DNA of 6,414 bases from DASVDK01 sp036562265 [NCBI: Thermodesulfobacteriota bacterium]. GTDB taxonomy: Bacteria; DASVDK01. Below are positions 370 to 5,149 of the stretch, one piece after another (position 1 is the stretch's first letter; every line of letters starts with the position of its first letter). The stretch spans positions 1 through 6,414 of the forward strand of contig DATCKS010000249.1 of assembly GCA_036562265.1 (NCBI GenBank). The letters run 5' to 3'. Below the pieces are notes generated by a model. The model was not told the origin of the DNA. It did not search any database and saw only the letters and a list, made by a program, of their open reading frames with translations. Made by a program: the position numbers and the translations under genes.

Positions 370-398
370 CGAGACCGGGCTGCTCACGCCCGGTCTCG
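370..398. terminator. Perfect 11-bp inverted repeat, likely bidirectional terminator
   Basis: CGAGACCGGGC (370-380) pairs perfectly with GCCCGGTCTCG (388-398) around a 7-nt loop. It sits between the converging VOC and STAS genes. The STAS stop codon (384-386 on the minus strand) lies in the loop. There is no good T-tract on either side; the plus side has only CTCTCTC. Terminator function is therefore inferred from the stem and from the convergent arrangement. Confidence 0.6.
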
Positions 399-653
399 CT
401 CTCTCGAGATCCATTCCCGGATGTAGGGCGGGCAGTTCACCAGCCTCGCGCCGTCGGCCTCGCAGCGCGCAAGGAGGCCCACGGCGTCCCGGTCGGCCAG
501 CGTGAGGTCCCTCAGGTCGAGCACGATGCGACGGCCCGATTCCGGTTCCAGGAGCGCCTGCAAGCCGGCCGCGTCGCCCGCACCGAACTCGCCGCTCACG
601 GTGAAGACGACGGTGTCGTCCTCCCTGGTCGATCGGTCGATCCTGAACGTCAT
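384..653 (-). CDS. Small STAS-domain protein (anti-anti-sigma-like), non-canonical phosphosite
   Basis: The product is 89 aa, about the length of a lone STAS domain. It has the alternating pattern of that fold: TVVFTVSGEF (residues 14-23), a helix AAGLQALLE, the strand RRIVLDLRDLTLADRDAVGLL (41-61), and a last strand ARLVNCPPYIREWI. In SpoIIAA-type proteins the strand-helix turn reads D-S-S-G-L, with a Ser that the partner kinase phosphorylates. Here the matching turn is D-A-V-G-L, with no Ser or Thr, so classic partner-switching control by phosphorylation looks impossible at that site. The start is ATG at 653, preceded by AAGGGG (657-662), which is rather close. The gene is divergent from the exported protein at 725. 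No anti-sigma kinase or sigma factor is visible nearby, so its role is unknown. Confidence 0.82.
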   Translation of the reverse strand: MTFRIDRSTREDDTVVFTVSGEFGAGDAAGLQALLEPESGRRIVLDLRDLTLADRDAVGLLARCEADGARLVNCPPYIREWISRERDRA

Positions 654-724: not shown

Positions 725-1108
725 ATGAAGAAAACCCTCATGGCCGCGGTCGTCGTCGCGGCCCTCACGCTGGTCGGCGGGGCTGCCTACGCGGACGGCT
801 TCATCGAGATGATGACCAAGACGGAGCGCATGATCGCCGACGCGGAGCAGAAGGGCGACATGACGAACGCCGCGGAGGCTCGCCGGCTCACCGCCGAGGC
901 GAAGAGCCTCTACGATCAGGGGCAGAGCGACGCCGCGCTCGTCCGGGTCGTCCGTGGAATGATGCTGGCAGCCGCATCGACGCGACACGGTGGCCCGAAC
1001 GGGAACCGGTCACGGACCCCTCGCAAGGCGTGCCGCTCGCGACGATTCGAAAGCTCGCGGATTACTGGGCGACGGACTACGACTGGCGACGGTGCGAGGC
1101 GAGCCTGA
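725..1108 (+). CDS. Small exported helical protein, C-terminus replaced by out-of-frame epoxide hydrolase DNA
   Basis: The start ATG has a good SD, AAAGGA at 712-717, 7 nt upstream. The product begins with a clear signal peptide: MKK, a hydrophobic core (LMAAVVVAALTLVGG) and AYA at 21-23, so cleavage before Asp24 is likely. The mature part, to about residue 83, is charged and helical (MMTKTERMIADAEQKGD, EARRLTAEAKSLYDQGQSD), like small periplasmic proteins of unknown function. From about residue 84 the composition changes to Arg/Ser/Thr-rich. There the DNA (about 967 onward) encodes an epoxide hydrolase fragment in another frame, so the last ~44 residues are a shadow translation, not native sequence. 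The ORF could still be expressed as a secreted chimera. The native C-terminus and function are unknown. Confidence 0.6.
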   Translation: MKKTLMAAVVVAALTLVGGAAYADGFIEMMTKTERMIADAEQKGDMTNAAEARRLTAEAKSLYDQGQSDAALVRVVRGMMLAAASTRHGGPNGNRSRTPRKACRSRRFESSRITGRRTTTGDGARRA

Positions 1109-1386
1109 ACGCCCTGCCGCAGTTCGTGACCGAGATCGACGGGCTCGACGTTCACGTCGTTCACGTTCGTTCGAAGCACGACGACGCGTTGCTCCTCATC
1201 GTCACGCACGGATGGCCGGGCTCGGTCGTCGAGCAGCTCAGGATCGTCGATCCGCCAACCGATCCCACGGCACATGGCGCGAGCGCGTCGAACGCCTTCC
1301 ATCTCGTGATCCCGTCGACGCCGGGCTACGGGTTCTCGGGCAAGCCGGCCGCCACCGGCTGGGGCCCCGAGCGCATCGCACGCGCC
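967..1386 (+). pseudogene. Epoxide hydrolase N-terminal (EHN) fragment
   Basis: In frame 1 the DNA reads SRIDATRWPEREPV, QGVPLATIRKLADYWATDYD, LNALPQFVTEIDGLDVHVVH, and THGWPGSVVEQL, with HGWP encoded at 1207-1218. It then continues through IPSTPGYGFSGKP and TGWGPERIARA. This is the EHN domain plus the first strands of the alpha/beta-hydrolase core of microsomal-type epoxide hydrolases; the HGWP motif is the family's oxyanion-hole signature. The start of the gene (normally ten or more residues before SRIDATRWP) is absent, replaced by the exported protein's sequence. Everything after RIARA is missing, including the G-G-D-W nucleophile region, the lid tyrosines and the catalytic His. The remnant of about 138 residues cannot be an active hydrolase. 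There is no own start codon or SD. Confidence 0.82.
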
Positions 1387-1566
1387 CTCGACGGACAGCC
1401 GCCCGGCGCCGCCCGCGGGATCGACATCGACGACCAGGGCCGCGGCACCGCCAGCGAACAGCGGCTCTATCAGCTGATCCGACAGCCGAAGCCCATCACC
1501 GATCGACAGTTCGAGATCGAGTTCCTCGATCCGGGCGTGGAGGCTCTCGCCTTCACGTTCGGCTGA
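1387..1566 (+). pseudogene. C-terminal fragment of a DipZ-type thioredoxin-family protein
   Basis: Continuing in the same frame as the epoxide hydrolase piece, the last 59 residues before TGA 1564-1566 read LDGQPPGAARGIDIDDQGRG, then TEQRLYQLIRQPKPI-like sequence (here ASEQRLYQLIRQPKPITD), and end FEIEFLDPGVEALAFTFG. I recognise this as the extreme C-terminus of thioredoxin/TlpA-like proteins of the DipZ type, which carry a beta-rich domain after the thioredoxin domain and end in this FLDPGV...AFTFG pattern. The thioredoxin domain with its CxxC is entirely absent. The preceding residues (WGPERIARA) belong to a different family, so the junction lies near 1381-1390. It has no own start site and is non-functional as a redox protein. 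Recognition is from memory of the family and has not been searched. Confidence 0.72.
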
Positions 1567-1584: not shown

Positions 1585-1628
1585 GGCGGCTCGGCCGCTG
1601 CCGTCCAACTCGGTTCGAACCGAGTTGG
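1585..1628 (+). repeat. Structured repeat, copy 1 (hairpin plus 24-bp palindrome)
   Basis: Bases 1585-1626 match 4627-4668 at 40 of 42 positions in the same orientation. The unit is a short hairpin (GGCGGC TCG GCCGCT, 1585-1599) followed by the palindrome AACTCGGTTCGAACCGAGTT (1607-1626). In this copy the palindrome extends to 24 bp (1605-1628). It begins 18 nt after the stop of the DipZ-type remnant. The architecture resembles REP/BIME-like extragenic elements, but I do not recognise the family. The GGTTCGAACC centre resembles a tRNA T-arm, yet no tRNA surrounds it. Confidence 0.82.
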
Positions 1629-1831
1629 CCCGCATGGAGAGCGCCGGTCTCGCGGCTTCGGCGGACGCTTCGAAAGATTCCTCGCAGACCGGTTTGCCCG
1701 GCCAGGCCCCCCGAACCGTGGTATGGTGACTCATCGACAGGCCTGTCCCCGCGCGTCCCACCCTGGGGGAACGGGTTCCAAGAGCGTCTGAGACCAGCCG
1801 CTTCTGCCGATACTCGGAAGGAGCGGTACCC
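1629..1831. other. Intergenic leader before the receiver-domain gene
   Basis: About 200 bp without a supportable gene. It should carry the promoter of the downstream cluster. A TATGGT at 1722-1727 could serve as a -10 box, but the nearest -35-like sequence (TTTGCC, 1693-1698) is 23 nt away, too far for a sigma-70 promoter, so I do not assign one. A short inverted repeat GGAAC-GG-GTTCC occurs near 1769-1780. It ends in the strong SD AAGGAG at 1818-1823. Confidence 0.5.
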
Positions 1832-2356
1832 ATGACCCCTCGCGTCCTCGTGCTCGAGCGCAACGCGGACCTCCGGATTCTGCTGGCCAGCATGCTTCGG
1901 CACGCCGGCTACGAGTGCGACGTCGCGGCCGGCGACGCCCTGGACCAGGTCCGGCAAGACCCCACGGGCACGCGCCGCCGGCGGCCAGCGCCCGCCGTGG
2001 TCGTGCTCGGCCTACCGCCGGGTCGAGCTGCCGGCCTCGCCATGTCGCGCGCCGCGAAGGCCCGCTGGCCGGGGATCCCGCTGGTCGTGCTGGTGAGCGA
2101 CCCCGGCTCGGGCCTCCGCGACAGCCATCTCGCAGCCGGCGCAGGCGCGGTGCTCTGCCGCCCGCTCGGACTCCACGTGCTGGGCGACACGATCGATCGG
2201 CTTCTCGGTGACGGTCCGGCCTCGCCGGCACGGCGCCTGAGCGCCGAGGAGCCGCGGCCGAGGCCGAAGCGCATCCTGATCGCGATCGGCGATGCGGCCG
2301 ACCGGCGCCGTTTGTCACGCAAGCACTCGACCCGGAGCGCGCGTCGTGCCGGCTGA
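1832..2356 (+). CDS. Degenerate receiver-domain (pseudo-REC) protein with a truncated second receiver
   Basis: The ATG is placed by AAGGAG at 1818-1823, 8 nt upstream. Residues 4-127 follow the response-regulator receiver fold: RVLVLERNADLRILLASMLR, HAGYECDVAAG, VVVLGLPPG, WPGIPLVVLVSDPGSGLRD, LAAGAGAVLCRPLG. The key residues are changed: the acidic pair of strand 1 is E9-R10, the phospho-acceptor Asp of strand 3 is Gly60, and the conserved Lys is Arg110; Ser89 remains at the Thr/Ser site. Aspartyl phosphorylation is therefore not expected. After a linker (128-144), KRILIAIGDAADRRRLSR (146-163) looks like the first strand and helix of a second receiver. It then breaks into a short Arg-rich end, so the protein appears cut there. 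It overlaps the next ORF by 11 nt. It may be a remnant or a phosphorylation-independent regulator. Confidence 0.75.
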   Translation: MTPRVLVLERNADLRILLASMLRHAGYECDVAAGDALDQVRQDPTGTRRRRPAPAVVVLGLPPGRAAGLAMSRAAKARWPGIPLVVLVSDPGSGLRDSHLAAGAGAVLCRPLGLHVLGDTIDRLLGDGPASPARRLSAEEPRPRPKRILIAIGDAADRRRLSRKHSTRSARRAG

Positions 2357-2534
2357 GCGCGGCTACTGGCGTGGCGTCGAGGGCCTCACCAGGTCGCTCG
2401 GCATGGACCCGTCGGTCACGGAGATCCGCACGGCGCTGCGATGGCGCTCGTTCCTCGATACCGAGGTCGCATCCCGGCGGTTCCCGAATCCGGAGCCGTT
2501 CGAAGTGTGGGTGCGCCAGGGGGCCAGGCCGTGA
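2346..2534 (+). CDS. 62-aa hypothetical protein, translationally coupled to the desaturase
   Basis: The GTG start at 2346 has GGAG at 2334-2337, 8 nt upstream, and lies inside the end of the receiver gene (11-nt overlap). The stop overlaps the desaturase start as GTGA (2531-2534). The protein is soluble and charged, with no membrane segment: YWRGVEGLTRSLGMDPSVTE, RWRSFLDTEVASRRFPNPEP, FEVWVRQGARP. I do not recognise the family. The end (FPNPEPFEVWVRQG) reads like natural protein sequence. Two readings are possible: a complete small gene in a coupled operon, or the 3' tail of a larger gene whose front was lost at the same break that truncated the second receiver. An internal ATG at 2403 is an alternative start. 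Confidence 0.5.
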   Translation: MPAERGYWRGVEGLTRSLGMDPSVTEIRTALRWRSFLDTEVASRRFPNPEPFEVWVRQGARP

Positions 2535-3403
2535 GCGCGCCAGCCGAGGCCCTGGCGACGCCGGCGCAGGTCCGCCGCCGCTTCAACTGGGGTCGCCTCG
2601 CGTTCCTCGTCCCGGTGCACGCGAGCCTGCTCCTCGCGCCGTGGACCTTCTCCTGGGTGAACCTTGGCGTGGCCGTCGGCCTGCACGCGCTCCTCGGCGG
2701 CCTCGGCATCTGCGTCGGCTACCACCGGCTTCTCACCCACAAGTCCTTCACGGCGCGCCGCCCGCTGACGTACCTGCTCGTCACGCTCGGCGCGTTGACG
2801 ATCCAGGGCGGCCCGTCGGCGTGGGTGGCCAACCACCGGCGGCACCACCGAAGCTCCGACGGCCCGGGCGATCCCCACGACGCGAGCCGGGGCTTCTGGT
2901 GGGCGCACATGGGCTGGATCTTCGCCGGCGTGCCGCCGGAGGACGCGCAGCGGTGGCGGCGACGTTACGCTCCCGACATGCTGGAGAACGCGTACTTCCG
3001 CTTCCTGGATCGCTGGTACTGGGCCCTGCAGATCCCGCTGGGCCTCGCGCTGCTGGCGGCCGGAGGCTGGGGCATGGTGGTCTGGGGAGTGGGCGTCCGC
3101 CTGGTCGCGACCTACCACACGACGTACCTCGTGAACTCGGCCGCGCATCGGTTCGGGTATCGGACCTACCGCACCGACGACCGCTCCCGAAACACCTGGT
3201 GGGTGGCGCTCCTGGCGTACGGGGAGGGGTGGCACAACAACCACCACGCGTTCCCCTGGTCGGCCCGGCACGGGCTGCGCCGGTGGGAGATCGACCCCGC
3301 CTACCTCGCCATCCGGCTCTTCCGGGTGCTGGGACTCGTGAGCACCGTGCACGTGCCCTCTCCGGATCGTCGGCGGGCGAGGGCGGGTGTCGAGGAGGCC
3401 TGA
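2531..3403 (+). CDS. Membrane acyl-CoA (delta-9 type) fatty acid desaturase
   Basis: The 290-aa product starts at GTG 2531, supported by AGGGGG at 2518-2523 and the GTGA overlap with the preceding stop. It carries the three histidine boxes of the membrane di-iron desaturases: H65-RLLT-H70 (HX4H), H102-RR-HH106 (HXXHH) and H235-NN-HH239 (HXXHH), plus the NSAAH motif at 202-206 found in the delta-9/SCD-like branch. Hydrophobic stretches at about 22-60, 78-95 and 165-195 fit the usual four-helix membrane topology. Such enzymes introduce a cis double bond into acyl-CoA or acyl-lipid chains, using O2 and electrons from a redox partner, and so adjust membrane fluidity. No ferredoxin, reductase or cytochrome b5 domain is present here. 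Length is typical for bacterial members and all ligands are intact, so it should be functional. A regulator-like gene follows 1 nt later. Confidence 0.95.
   Translation: MSAPAEALATPAQVRRRFNWGRLAFLVPVHASLLLAPWTFSWVNLGVAVGLHALLGGLGICVGYHRLLTHKSFTARRPLTYLLVTLGALTIQGGPSAWVANHRRHHRSSDGPGDPHDASRGFWWAHMGWIFAGVPPEDAQRWRRRYAPDMLENAYFRFLDRWYWALQIPLGLALLAAGGWGMVVWGVGVRLVATYHTTYLVNSAAHRFGYRTYRTDDRSRNTWWVALLAYGEGWHNNHHAFPWSARHGLRRWEIDPAYLAIRLFRVLGLVSTVHVPSPDRRRARAGVEEA
3392..3398 (+). promoter_or_regulatory. Strong SD fixing the MqsA-like start at ATG 3405
   Basis: GAGGAGG lies 6 nt before ATG 3405 and inside the last codons of the desaturase. It favours this ATG over an in-frame GTG at 3387, which would place the SD inside the coding region. 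Confidence 0.75.
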
Positions 3404-3404
3404 C

Positions 3405-3965
3405 ATGCCCGCGGGACGAGGACTCACGACGGGGGCGCTCGAGGCGACGTGCCCGGTCTGCGGGACCGCGATGACCGCGGGCGAGGGGACCATTCCGGAC
3501 GAGGTGGCGGGCCTGCCGGTGACTCTCGTCGGCCTCACGGTGTACCGCTGTACGCGCTGCGGCCAGGTCGAGCCGGTGGTCGAGGAGTGGATGTCGCTGC
3601 TCTGCGCGATCGCCGGGGCGCTGATCCACAAGCGGATCCGGCTGGCGCCCGAGGAGATCCGCTTCCTGCGGCGGGCCCTCGCCCTCTCGAAGAGCGACCT
3701 CGCGGACGGCCTGGACACGACGCCGCAGACCGTCGCGCGCTGGGAGCATGGAGACGAGCCGATCAGTCCTCCCGCGGACCGGCGCCTTCGGCTCATGGTG
3801 GTCGCCGACGCGACGACCGGACACTCCAGGCTCGGCGGCGTCATCCGGGGCGACCTGTCCCTCGATCGCCTGATGGAGATCGACGACGCCGCGCCGCCGG
3901 CCCGCGTCCCGCTACGACTCGCGCGCGACGCGCGCGGCTGGCGCCTGAGCTGGGCCGCCTGTTGA
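3405..3965 (+). CDS. MqsA/YgiT-type zinc-finger and helix-turn-helix regulator (orphan antitoxin-like)
   Basis: The ATG start has GAGGAGG 6 nt upstream and lies 1 nt after the desaturase stop. The 186-aa product has a YgiT-type zinc ribbon at the N-terminus, C16-PV-C19 and C49-TR-C52, then a linker helix (LLCAIAGALIHKRIR). An XRE-like DNA-binding domain at about 80-130 follows, with LAPEEIRFLRRALALSKSDL, ADGLDTTPQTVARWEHG. This order matches MqsA antitoxins, in which the zinc domain binds the MqsR RNase and the HTH autorepresses. E. coli MqsA is about 131 aa; this protein has some 50 extra C-terminal residues (GGVIRGDLSLDRLMEIDD, LRLARDARGWRLSWAAC). No MqsR-like gene is next to it in this window; its neighbour is the desaturase. 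It is more likely a transcriptional regulator of its own operon than half of an active toxin-antitoxin pair, but that is inference. Confidence 0.87.
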   Translation: MPAGRGLTTGALEATCPVCGTAMTAGEGTIPDEVAGLPVTLVGLTVYRCTRCGQVEPVVEEWMSLLCAIAGALIHKRIRLAPEEIRFLRRALALSKSDLADGLDTTPQTVARWEHGDEPISPPADRRLRLMVVADATTGHSRLGGVIRGDLSLDRLMEIDDAAPPARVPLRLARDARGWRLSWAAC

Positions 3966-3993
3966 CAGCGGCGGGATGTACCCCCCTGACCAT

Positions 3994-3998
3994 GGAGG
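3994..3998 (+). promoter_or_regulatory. SD GGAGG deciding between ATG 3992 and GTG 4004
   Basis: GGAGG sits 5 nt before GTG 4004 and within the first codons after ATG 3992. ATG 3992 has no SD at useful distance, so GTG 4004 is the better-supported start of the four-cysteine protein. Confidence 0.55.
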
Positions 3999-4003
3999 CG
4001 ACC

Positions 4004-4195
4004 GTGCCGGAAACCACCAGAGGAACCTGGGTGCGCACGAGCAACCTGCCCGACTGCCGGGGCTGCCAACGGATCGGCCGCGAGTGGCTCTACAAGGTCG
4101 GCCCCCTGATCGTCACGCGCGTCCGTGCCTGCTTCCGCTGCGACGCCGAGGTGAAGGCCAGGGCCCTCGAGTCGATCCCCGAGCGGTACAGGTAG
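4004..4195 (+). CDS. 63-aa four-cysteine (zinc-ribbon-like) small protein
   Basis: Starting at GTG 4004 the product is 63 aa; an in-frame ATG at 3992 would add four residues. It holds two CxxC pairs, C18-RG-C21 and C43-FR-C46, spaced by a short segment EWLYKVGPLIVTRVRA. That spacing suits a treble-clef or zinc-ribbon fold, so it probably binds one zinc ion. The charged tail is KARALESIPERYR. It begins 38 nt after the MqsA-like stop, on the same strand, and may be the last gene of that transcript. I do not recognise the family. Zinc binding is inferred from the cysteines; DNA, RNA or protein binding cannot be told apart. The coding frame is clean and ends in TAG 4193-4195. Confidence 0.6.
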   Translation: MPETTRGTWVRTSNLPDCRGCQRIGREWLYKVGPLIVTRVRACFRCDAEVKARALESIPERYR

Positions 4196-4626
4196 CTCCG
4201 AATCGGTCGTCCTGAGCAGACCTCGAAGACGACGCCTTACGTCGCGGACGATCGTTTCCTGCTGTAGCCCAGGCGGATCGAAGCGATTTGCCGGGGCATC
4301 ACCGACAGCTTCGGACTCGAGAGCGGAATCCGGAAGCACCTCGACCGGCCGAGCGAGGAGCAGACGCCGTCTCCCGCGGCTCGCCTGCTGTAGCAGGCCG
4401 TACTGCACGTTCGGCGAGCGGGCGGGCTCCGCCACGGTGCCCGGCCCTGGCCAGCTCCCCCAGGCCGAAGAGTCTCGGTTGCCTGGCTCGATTCCCTCGC
4501 CGCGAGCCGTGTGGGTTTAGGATGTGCCGCCACTTTGCGGATCGTGATCGCGGCTGCTCAGAGAGGCTCAGCGGCCGTCCCGCTCGTCGCGTGTGAGGCA
4601 CCCTCGTGCCGAGGTCTGCCTCTTAG
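4196..4626. other. Gene-poor stretch, probably decayed DNA
   Basis: About 430 bp with no ORF on either strand that looks like real protein or has an SD. One fragment on the plus strand, following the TAG near 4267, reads GITDSFGLESGIRKHLDRP and has natural-looking composition, but I cannot assign it. An 11-mer CCTGCTGTAGC occurs twice, at 4258-4268 and 4385-4395. The second lies in a perfect hairpin GCCTGC-TGTA-GCAGGC (4383-4398). A weaker 5-bp stem, CGACG-CCTTA-CGTCG, lies at 4230-4244. Either hairpin could end the upstream transcript, but neither has a T-tract. Confidence 0.5.
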
Positions 4627-5149
4627 GGCGGCTGGGCCGCCGCCGTCCAACTCGGTTCGAACCGAGTTCGCTGCCAGCCGGCGCCCCGGCGAGCCGTGAC
4701 GTAGACCGCCGCCGGCTCCCGCACCTGTGACTCGCCCCAAGGGCCGAACACCTGCTCGGCCTCGTACCGGTTGTGCGCCCGGCAGCGCAGCTCGATGTTC
4801 GCCACCGTTGCCGCGCCGCCTTCGGCCCCGCCGGCGAGGTGCTCGAGGAGGACGGGAACCACCGCGCCGCCCGGGCGGCCTCGATGCGGCTGTAGGCGGC
4901 GTGCTCGGCGAGGTGGAGGGCCTGGGTGCAGTAGGCGAAGAGCGGCGGGTAGCCCTCGGCGAGGTAGAGGCGGCGGGTGTCGAGTTCCGCGAGGCGCGCG
5001 ATCAACGCAACGGTCGCCTCGCGCTCGCGCGCAGCGAGCCGGGCGGCCTGCGCGAGGAGTTCGGCATCCGAGAGCTGAAGCGGGAGCAGGAAGGCTGGTC
5101 GGCGGAGCCATGCTCCACTTCTATCACGCGGGTTCGGCAGGCTCTCCAC
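4623..5149 (-). pseudogene. HNH endonuclease remnant with internal deletion and frameshift
   Basis: Reading leftward from GTG 5149, one frame gives the typical N-terminus of a common HNH nuclease family: PLQLSDAELLAQAARLAARE, REATVALIARLAELDTRRLY, LAEGYPPLFAYCTQALHL, RIEAARAARWFP. At about 4853-4856 it shifts. The next frame continues with VLLEHLAGGA and then jumps directly to EGGAATVANIELRCRAHN, RYEAEQVFGP, the family's extreme C-terminal HNH end. Full-length members have a large middle, I recall about 250 residues, including the WxRDGxxCxxC and FHH parts of the nuclease site; it is absent here. The junction is near 4824-4829, within GGCGGG/GGCGGC, which suggests deletion at a short shared sequence. 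The shift fits loss of one G in CCGGTCC. The last residues before TAA (4623-4625) come from the repeat copy. It is inactive as a nuclease. Confidence 0.85.
4627..4668 (+). repeat. Structured repeat, copy 2 (hairpin plus 20-bp palindrome)
   Basis: Matches 1585-1626 at 40 of 42 positions in the same orientation. The hairpin here is GGCGGC-TGG-GCCGCC (4627-4641), a perfect 6-bp stem, followed by the 20-bp palindrome AACTCGGTTCGAACCGAGTT (4649-4668). It lies at the 3' end of the minus-strand HNH remnant and supplies its last codons. Confidence 0.82.

What the first reader, a model, noticed from the sequence alone, without database searches (positions are those of the whole stretch)
1585..4668. 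Two-copy 42-bp repeat made of two hairpins, with substitutions that keep the fold
Copies at 1585-1626 and 4627-4668 agree at 40 of 42 bases, same orientation, 3 kb apart. Each has a 6-bp stem (GGCGGC...) and then a perfect 20-bp palindrome, extended to 24 bp in copy 1. The two differences are informative: one is in the 3-nt loop (C/G at 1592/4634), and the other turns a G-C pair into G-U (T at 1599, C at 4641). That pattern suggests selection on an RNA or ssDNA structure, as in REP/BIME-type elements mobilised by TnpA-REP (RAYT) transposases, or in a terminator cassette. Both copies sit next to broken genes.
Basis: partly seen in the sequence, partly recalled or inferred. Interest (0 to 1): 0.7.

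Follow-up and report, generated by a model that had tools for sequence, protein, structure and literature searches.

The report
Palindromic end of an HNH-nuclease element
A short repeated DNA palindrome in this bacterial window appears to be the end-mark of a decayed, probably selfish gene for an HNH DNA-cutting enzyme, and relatives in other bacteria show gene and palindrome linked and changing together, which may add a new kind of repeat-and-enzyme pair.

Summary
In detail: two 42-bp copies agree at 40 of 42 bases. The RAYT and RNA/ssDNA readings do not fit well. The conserved core is the 20-bp palindrome AACTCGGTTCGAACCGAGTT (1607-1626, 4649-4668). Copy 2 begins 75 nt past the last conserved codon of a decayed HNH endonuclease gene on the minus strand. 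In one order of Acidobacteriota, HNH genes of this family carry such palindromes beside them (25 of 28 genes, window included). Inner bases change symmetrically, including the central four, which cannot pair in a hairpin; this points to duplex DNA read by a symmetric protein. Palindrome type follows the HNH tree more than the genome. Similarity between HNH copies mostly stops at the palindrome's outer edge (15 of 20 informative pairs). Solo palindromes occur just after gene ends, as copy 1 does. Among listed matches, full palindromes were 10 of 18 in HNH-bearing genomes and 0 of 57 in others. Best reading: a REP-like repeat whose partner is an HNH endonuclease instead of a Y1 transposase. Binding, cutting and movement are inferred. 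The window's own genome and phylum are unknown.

The parts
1585..1626 (+). Copy 1 of the 42-bp repeat (solo copy), 18 bp after the stop of the ORF ending at 1566
1607..1626 (.). Palindrome core of copy 1, AACTCGGTTCGAACCGAGTT
   Evidence: score 20 of 20
1585..1599 (+).
4627..4668 (+). Copy 2 of the 42-bp repeat, beside the 3' end of the HNH remnant
4649..4668 (.). Palindrome core of copy 2, 75-94 nt downstream of the last conserved HNH codon
4627..4641 (+). Outer hairpin of copy 2, on the side away from the HNH remnant
4853..5083 (-). N-terminal part of a decayed HNH endonuclease gene (query residues 13-89, 69% identical)
4743..4808 (-). C-terminal part of the same gene (query residues 320-341, 73% identical); about 230 residues between the parts are missing

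Best explanation
The repeat is the palindromic end-mark of a small mobile element whose only gene is an HNH endonuclease. Copy 2 is the 3' end of a decayed element (HNH gene on the minus strand with its middle missing). Copy 1 is a solo copy of the same end (palindrome plus outer hairpin) placed just after a gene's 3' end. Shown by computation: linkage of HNH genes and palindromes, symmetric covariation of the palindrome, co-divergence with the HNH protein, similarity between HNH copies ending at the palindrome, solo copies after gene ends. Inferred: an HNH dimer reads the palindrome as duplex DNA, cuts or nicks there, and so spreads the gene, and sometimes the bare end, to palindromes or gene-end sites, in the manner of a free-standing homing endonuclease with REP-like ends.
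For:: the window holds both ends of an HNH gene beside copy 2. HNH in 13 of 161 genomes of the order of G334; of 31 sites scoring at least 16 of 20 among 104,116 positions of 28 HNH loci, 27 lie in the HNH flanks (17,452 positions); 25 of 28 genes have at least one; a dyad of at least 9 of 10 pairs within 110 nt downstream in 12 of 28 genes against 2.0% of control windows, p 8e-14 (two of the 12, L164 and L186, are not of the AACT type); among the matches that one search listed, full palindromes in 10 of 18 in HNH genomes against 0 of 57 in others; 9 changes of site type on the HNH tree (least possible 8; shuffled mean 14.5; 0 of 200 as low); proteins of types 3, 4 and 8 from G452 and G675 group by type; 15 of 20 informative aligned pairs that span the palindrome stop within 7 nt of its outer edge; 15 sites scoring at least 18 in 777,154 bases of G675 (8 of them within 300 nt of an HNH match), 0 in the half-swap control.
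Against: No binding, cutting or movement is shown. Co-divergence is also expected if palindrome and gene are merely inherited as one piece. The window's genome and relatives are not available, so its type (GGTTCGAACC) rests on two copies; it rang in none of the scans that could have shown it. In G334 only 1 of about 10 palindromes is beside an HNH gene. In the window the shared part is palindrome plus outer flank, not palindrome plus HNH tail. The left end of the type-3 group is not a palindrome; upstream palindromes were seen in only 10 of 24 genes, at least one of them a relic of another copy. 5 of 20 informative pairs run on past the palindrome. 3 of 28 HNH genes showed no site at the threshold in the flank searched (L166, L172, L186; L172 has one just outside it). 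Of the 18 listed matches in HNH genomes 8 are not full palindromes, and two HNH genomes (G578, G390) had no match to that pattern. Types 1 and 3 need 5 and 3 changes on the tree.
Confidence: 0.65

Rival explanations
1. The palindrome is a host site (for a chromosome-organising or regulatory protein) after gene ends, and HNH elements use it as a safe landing place; the enzyme has no part in spreading it.
For: Solo copies outnumber HNH-linked ones in G334; they sit after gene ends; duplex symmetry fits any dimeric DNA-binding protein.
Against: Full palindromes were absent from the 57 listed matches in genomes without a found HNH gene; several types coexist in one genome and largely follow the HNH tree.
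Confidence: 0.2
2. A REP/REPIN element moved by a RAYT Y1 transposase.
For: Dispersed palindromes after gene ends; two-hairpin layout in the window.
Against: 0 PF01797 matches in G334 with about 10 copies; no common GTAG at the foot; symmetric central bases.
Confidence: 0.05
3. An intrinsic (perhaps two-way) transcription terminator of the HNH gene and others.
For: Stable hairpins after gene ends, two of them between converging genes in G334 (L119, L124).
Against: No T-run after either window copy on either strand; by eye, only one of the G334 copies has one close by (L122); a terminator needs neither a symmetric loop nor a constant AACT...AGTT foot.
Confidence: 0.06
4. Chance pair or local duplication with no wider meaning.
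For: Only two copies can be seen in the window.
Against: 0 of 200 shuffles; the same palindrome frame beside HNH genes in other genomes.
Confidence: 0.02

Closest known systems
CGTC-tagged REP repeats (PMC3733652; abstract, passages and section 6 seen)
   Same: Short palindromes of 8-9 bp stems with A/T first two pairs and 4-5 nt loops, mostly after coding regions, apparently without a dedicated transposase; both window copies have CGTC one base before the palindrome.
   Different: No CCA tail; a CGTC tag is not general among the HNH-linked sites; the centre is symmetric; an HNH gene is linked here.
REP/REPIN with RAYT (Y1 transposase)
   Same: A repeat with a linked nuclease-type gene, and solo copies between genes.
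   Different: HNH endonuclease instead of Y1/HUH; no GTAG; duplex symmetry.
REP13E12 (DUF222-HNH repeats of Mycobacterium tuberculosis; passages of PMC10589994 seen, other details recalled)
   Same: Multi-copy HNH endonuclease genes listed as repetitive elements.
   Different: PF02720 (DUF222) was not reported for three of these proteins; I recall no palindromic end for REP13E12, and did not test it.
Free-standing HNH homing endonuclease genes of phages (recalled)
   Same: A lone HNH gene that would spread through cutting near its place.
   Different: Chromosomal, many copies, with a palindrome as the end and solo ends.

Membership tests
RAYT-linked REP | Y1 transposase (PF01797) in the genome, beside copies | tested here: not met
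   G334: 0 matches with about 10 copies; G421 has 3 and G572 has 2 matches, on other contigs than their palindromes. Window genome not testable; G675 and G452 not searched.
RAYT-linked REP | GTAG/GTRG at the foot of the stem | tested here: not met
   Window foot is GTCC; no common GTAG in the 17 downstream sites (by eye).
CGTC REP | CGTC tag directly at the foot | tested here: inconclusive
   Window: CGTC then one C before AACTCGG in both copies; L165 has CGTC at the foot; not general (by eye).
CGTC REP | CCA tail | tested here: not met
   Window tails are GGC and CGC.
CGTC REP | 8-9 bp stem, A/T first two pairs, 4-5 nt loop | tested here: met
   AACTCGGT-TCGA-ACCGAGTT.
HNH endonuclease | HNH domain | tested here: met
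   PF01844 E 3e-5 above the cut-off for L125, about 1e-3 and below the cut-off for L160 and L130; PHROG HNH families, best 1.8e-8. The window's own remnant gave no Pfam match and is placed by tblastn only.
REP13E12 / DUF222 | DUF222 domain PF02720 | tested here: not met
   Not among matches at E 0.01 in three proteins.
Homing endonuclease element | Cleaves empty sites and copies itself in | not testable with these tools
   Needs a bench test.
Intrinsic terminator | T-run after the hairpin | tested here: not met
   Neither window copy on either strand.
Described RNA family | Rfam match | tested here: not met
   0 matches at gathering score.

The most novel reading that the evidence does not exclude
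A class of REP-like repeats that owes its spread to HNH endonucleases: each HNH lineage reads, as duplex DNA, its own version of a 20-bp palindrome AACT...CG...AGTT that forms the end of its element, and bare ends spread to gene 3' ends. It would supply an enzyme partner for palindromic repeats that have none.
Probability: 0.5. Interest if true: 0.82.

Novelty: new variant of a known kind. Interest (0 to 1): 0.7.

Why it matters
Many bacterial palindromic repeats have no known mover; the CGTC group is said apparently to lack a dedicated transposase (PMC3733652). A natural series of HNH enzymes, each tied to its own palindrome version and several of them together in one genome, makes the question of enzyme-site pairing directly testable, and could also be a source of rare-cutting nucleases whose sites can be read from the genome.

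Tried and rejected
RAYT: no Y1 gene in G334; a PF01797 search of 58 genomes of another phylum served only to look for handles. RNA family: no Rfam match at gathering score. Outer hairpin as a general part: rejected, mean z near 0 for 17 downstream and 8 of the 10 upstream sites (L173 and L185 left out); it is shared only in the window, in the type-3 group (TGGCAC...GTGCCA) and, by eye, in some solo copies (L118, L119). Viral, phage and plasmid collections: no match, or matches without the palindrome or with an asymmetric centre, apart from one viral contig, L128, with the 18-base core of the type-1 palindrome. 17 diverse genomes with a 22-base pattern gave 2 asymmetric matches at 3 mismatches. 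A pattern with a free centre gave, outside G334 and G421, one asymmetric match (G322) in 396 genomes. No HNH relative on viral contigs; on plasmids only two weak Deinococcus matches covering 19% of the query. Whole-window DNA searches of 199 Acidobacteriota and 148 further genomes (phylum of G007), in which only two candidates per genome were scored, gave only matches to parts of a few genes, at best 80% over about 420 bases; so the phylum stays unknown. Palindromes as ends on both sides: only partly true; sites at the threshold on both sides in 2 genes (L159, L175), and in L175 the upstream one is a relic of another HNH copy.

Rows dropped: of 30 HNH loci, L174 (no 3' end) and L179, L180, L181, L189 (second pieces of genes already counted) were left out; L158, L159 and the window were added, giving 28. 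One search listed 46 matches, loci were given for 30. For the tree L159 and L186 (fragments) and the window were left out, and of the 25 left 22 had at least 250 residues. Site types were assigned by eye (L173 from its upstream, L175 from its downstream site, L172); L166 was kept as its own state. In one search, 22 pairs span the palindrome; the two with L260:19973 are left out because the fetched stretch ends 8 nt after it. regions were chosen on contigs known to hold HNH genes, so densities there are not genome averages. One search uses only the matches that one search listed; G675 (16 places) and G440 (5) were among those not listed. G586 is counted there as HNH-bearing because of its remnant (L159), although one search did not list it; counted as negative, the genome-level comparison gives p 1.3e-4. 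The score was set after the first sites had been seen.

Papers: searches listed no paper that I could see to link HNH genes with such palindromes; only the top of each listing was seen, and no paper but PMC3733652 (abstract, passages, section 6) and PMC10589994 (passages) was opened.

Full report
Observation. The two copies are real, in the stated places, 40 of 42 bases alike, with 0 of 200 shuffles giving such a pair; the ungapped similarity runs 50 nt at 90%. Both fold well as single strands. The two differences are compatible with the fold, but two changes are little evidence, and the 20-bp palindrome itself does not differ between copies.

First relatives. No genome is held for the window. 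Exact scans of viral contigs for 24 bases and of the species-genome collection for 20 bases found nothing. A 24-base pattern with up to 3 mismatches then rang in 1 of 396 Acidobacteriota genomes, G334, three times, and in no reversed control. A palindrome-only pattern gave 10 places with up to 2 mismatches and one more with 3 in G334. There the core is AACTCGGTCCGGACCGAGTT: against the window both T9 and A12 have changed, keeping symmetry. Only two bases lie between positions 9 and 12, so they cannot pair in a hairpin; the symmetry should matter in duplex DNA.

Position. For six of the G334 solo copies a neighbouring gene is supported by Pfam, and in each the palindrome lies 5 to 96 bp past that gene's 3' end, twice between converging genes (ORF ends). 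A seventh (L121) follows an ORF without a Pfam match. Window copy 1 (palindrome) lies 40 bp past the stop at 1566. No Y1 transposase was found in G334.

HNH link. In L125 (G334), L158 (G583) and L159 (G586) the palindrome directly follows the C-terminal motif of an HNH gene. The window turned out to hold the two ends of a gene of this family on the minus strand (69% and 73% identical, middle missing) with copy 2 just downstream. L159 is much alike: HNH ends with the middle missing, between two palindromes. An HNH search found the family in 13 of 161 genomes of the order of G334.

Counts. Over 28 HNH genes (window included) 17 have a site scoring at least 16 of 20 within 230 nt downstream and 10 of 24 within 500 nt upstream; 25 of 28 have at least one; 27 of the 31 such sites in all 104,116 positions lie in these flanks, which make up 17,452 positions. 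The other four are window copy 1, one site each in L162 and L168, and one in L172 just outside the searched flank. The score contains the AACT...AGTT foot, so it was set after seeing the first sites; the foot-free dyad test gives 12 of 28 against 2.0% in control windows, two of the 12 without the AACT foot. Versions seen: GGTCCGGACC, GGTTCGAACC (window), GTTTCGAAAC, GTGCCGGCAC, GTTCCGGAAC and CGTCCGGACG within AACTC...GAGTT, GGTCCGGACC within AACTG...CAGTT, CCGCGCGG within AACTGG...CCAGTT, and CCCCGGGG within CACTCG...CGAGTG (L185, only 10 nt before the first aligned residue, perhaps chance). A pattern that fixes only the outer six bases gave full palindromes in 10 of 18 listed matches of HNH genomes and 0 of 57 of others, p 5e-8; the list was cut short.

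Co-divergence. On a tree of 22 HNH proteins the site types need 9 changes (least possible 8; shuffled mean 14.5; none of 200 as low). In G452 and G675, which each hold several types, proteins group by type across the two genomes (support 100/100 for the type-3 group with L166, 99/96 for type 4, 100/100 for type 8). Type 1 needs 5 changes and type 3 needs 3 on the whole tree, so type is not a perfect marker. Physical linkage alone would give part of this pattern.

Element end. In G675 HNH copies and truncated ends at different places align up to the palindrome and stop: of 20 informative pairs that span it, 15 end within 7 nt of its outer edge and 5 run on; two copies 95.5% alike over 67 nt (L251, L239) also stop there. 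Truncated 3' ends of about 60 and 110 nt, palindrome included, occur without their gene (L239:4797, L256:4411). The pairs are not independent, as few copies are involved. The left end of the type-3 group lies about 215-226 nt before residue 16, near CTTGACA, and is no palindrome.

The window's second hairpin. In the window palindrome plus outer hairpin are shared by the HNH-linked and the solo copy. Type-3 sites share an outer TGGCAC...GTGCCA motif, but over all sites there is no excess of structure.

How it most likely works. An HNH dimer recognises the palindrome as duplex DNA; cutting or nicking near it lets the element, or its bare end, be copied to other palindromes or gene ends. Recognition, cutting and copying are inferred; linkage, symmetry, co-divergence, the end at the palindrome and the gene-end position are what the calls show. 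It works like REP with its enzyme or like a free-standing homing gene; membership in RAYT-REP is not met, in CGTC REP not met for the tail and inconclusive for the tag, in DUF222/REP13E12 not met by Pfam.

Limits. The window's phylum is unknown, its own copy number untested, and the relatives with an HNH gene are all from one order of Acidobacteriota.

Noticed in passing
window 725-1566: A chimeric stretch: start of a small ORF with a signal-like N-terminus (725), then an epoxide-hydrolase piece (968-1386, up to about 81% DNA identity to several phyla) joined directly to a piece of another conserved sequence (1388-1566, 76%; its gene is not named by any search).
   Followed up: partly
G675 loci L239:4797, L256:4411: Short 3' ends of HNH elements (about 60 and 110 nt with the palindrome) without their gene, like miniature derivatives.
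   Followed up: partly
L232:12258, L232:16013, L241:13957 (G675): A longer repeat (44-66 nt aligned) runs through a type-4 palindrome, or a decayed one, away from an intact HNH gene; it may be another repeat using the same palindrome.
   Followed up: no
L112, L120, L122, L130: A second small motif, GCAGAAA-like or its complement, adjoins the palindrome in several copies (by eye).
   Followed up: no
L128 (IMG/VR contig, 3065-3082): A contig classed as viral carries the 18-base core of the type-1 palindrome.
   Followed up: no
window 377-406: An inverted repeat GAGACCGGGC...GCCCGGTCTC after the VOC-like ORF looks like an ordinary terminator stem, unlike the palindromes here (by eye).
   Followed up: no
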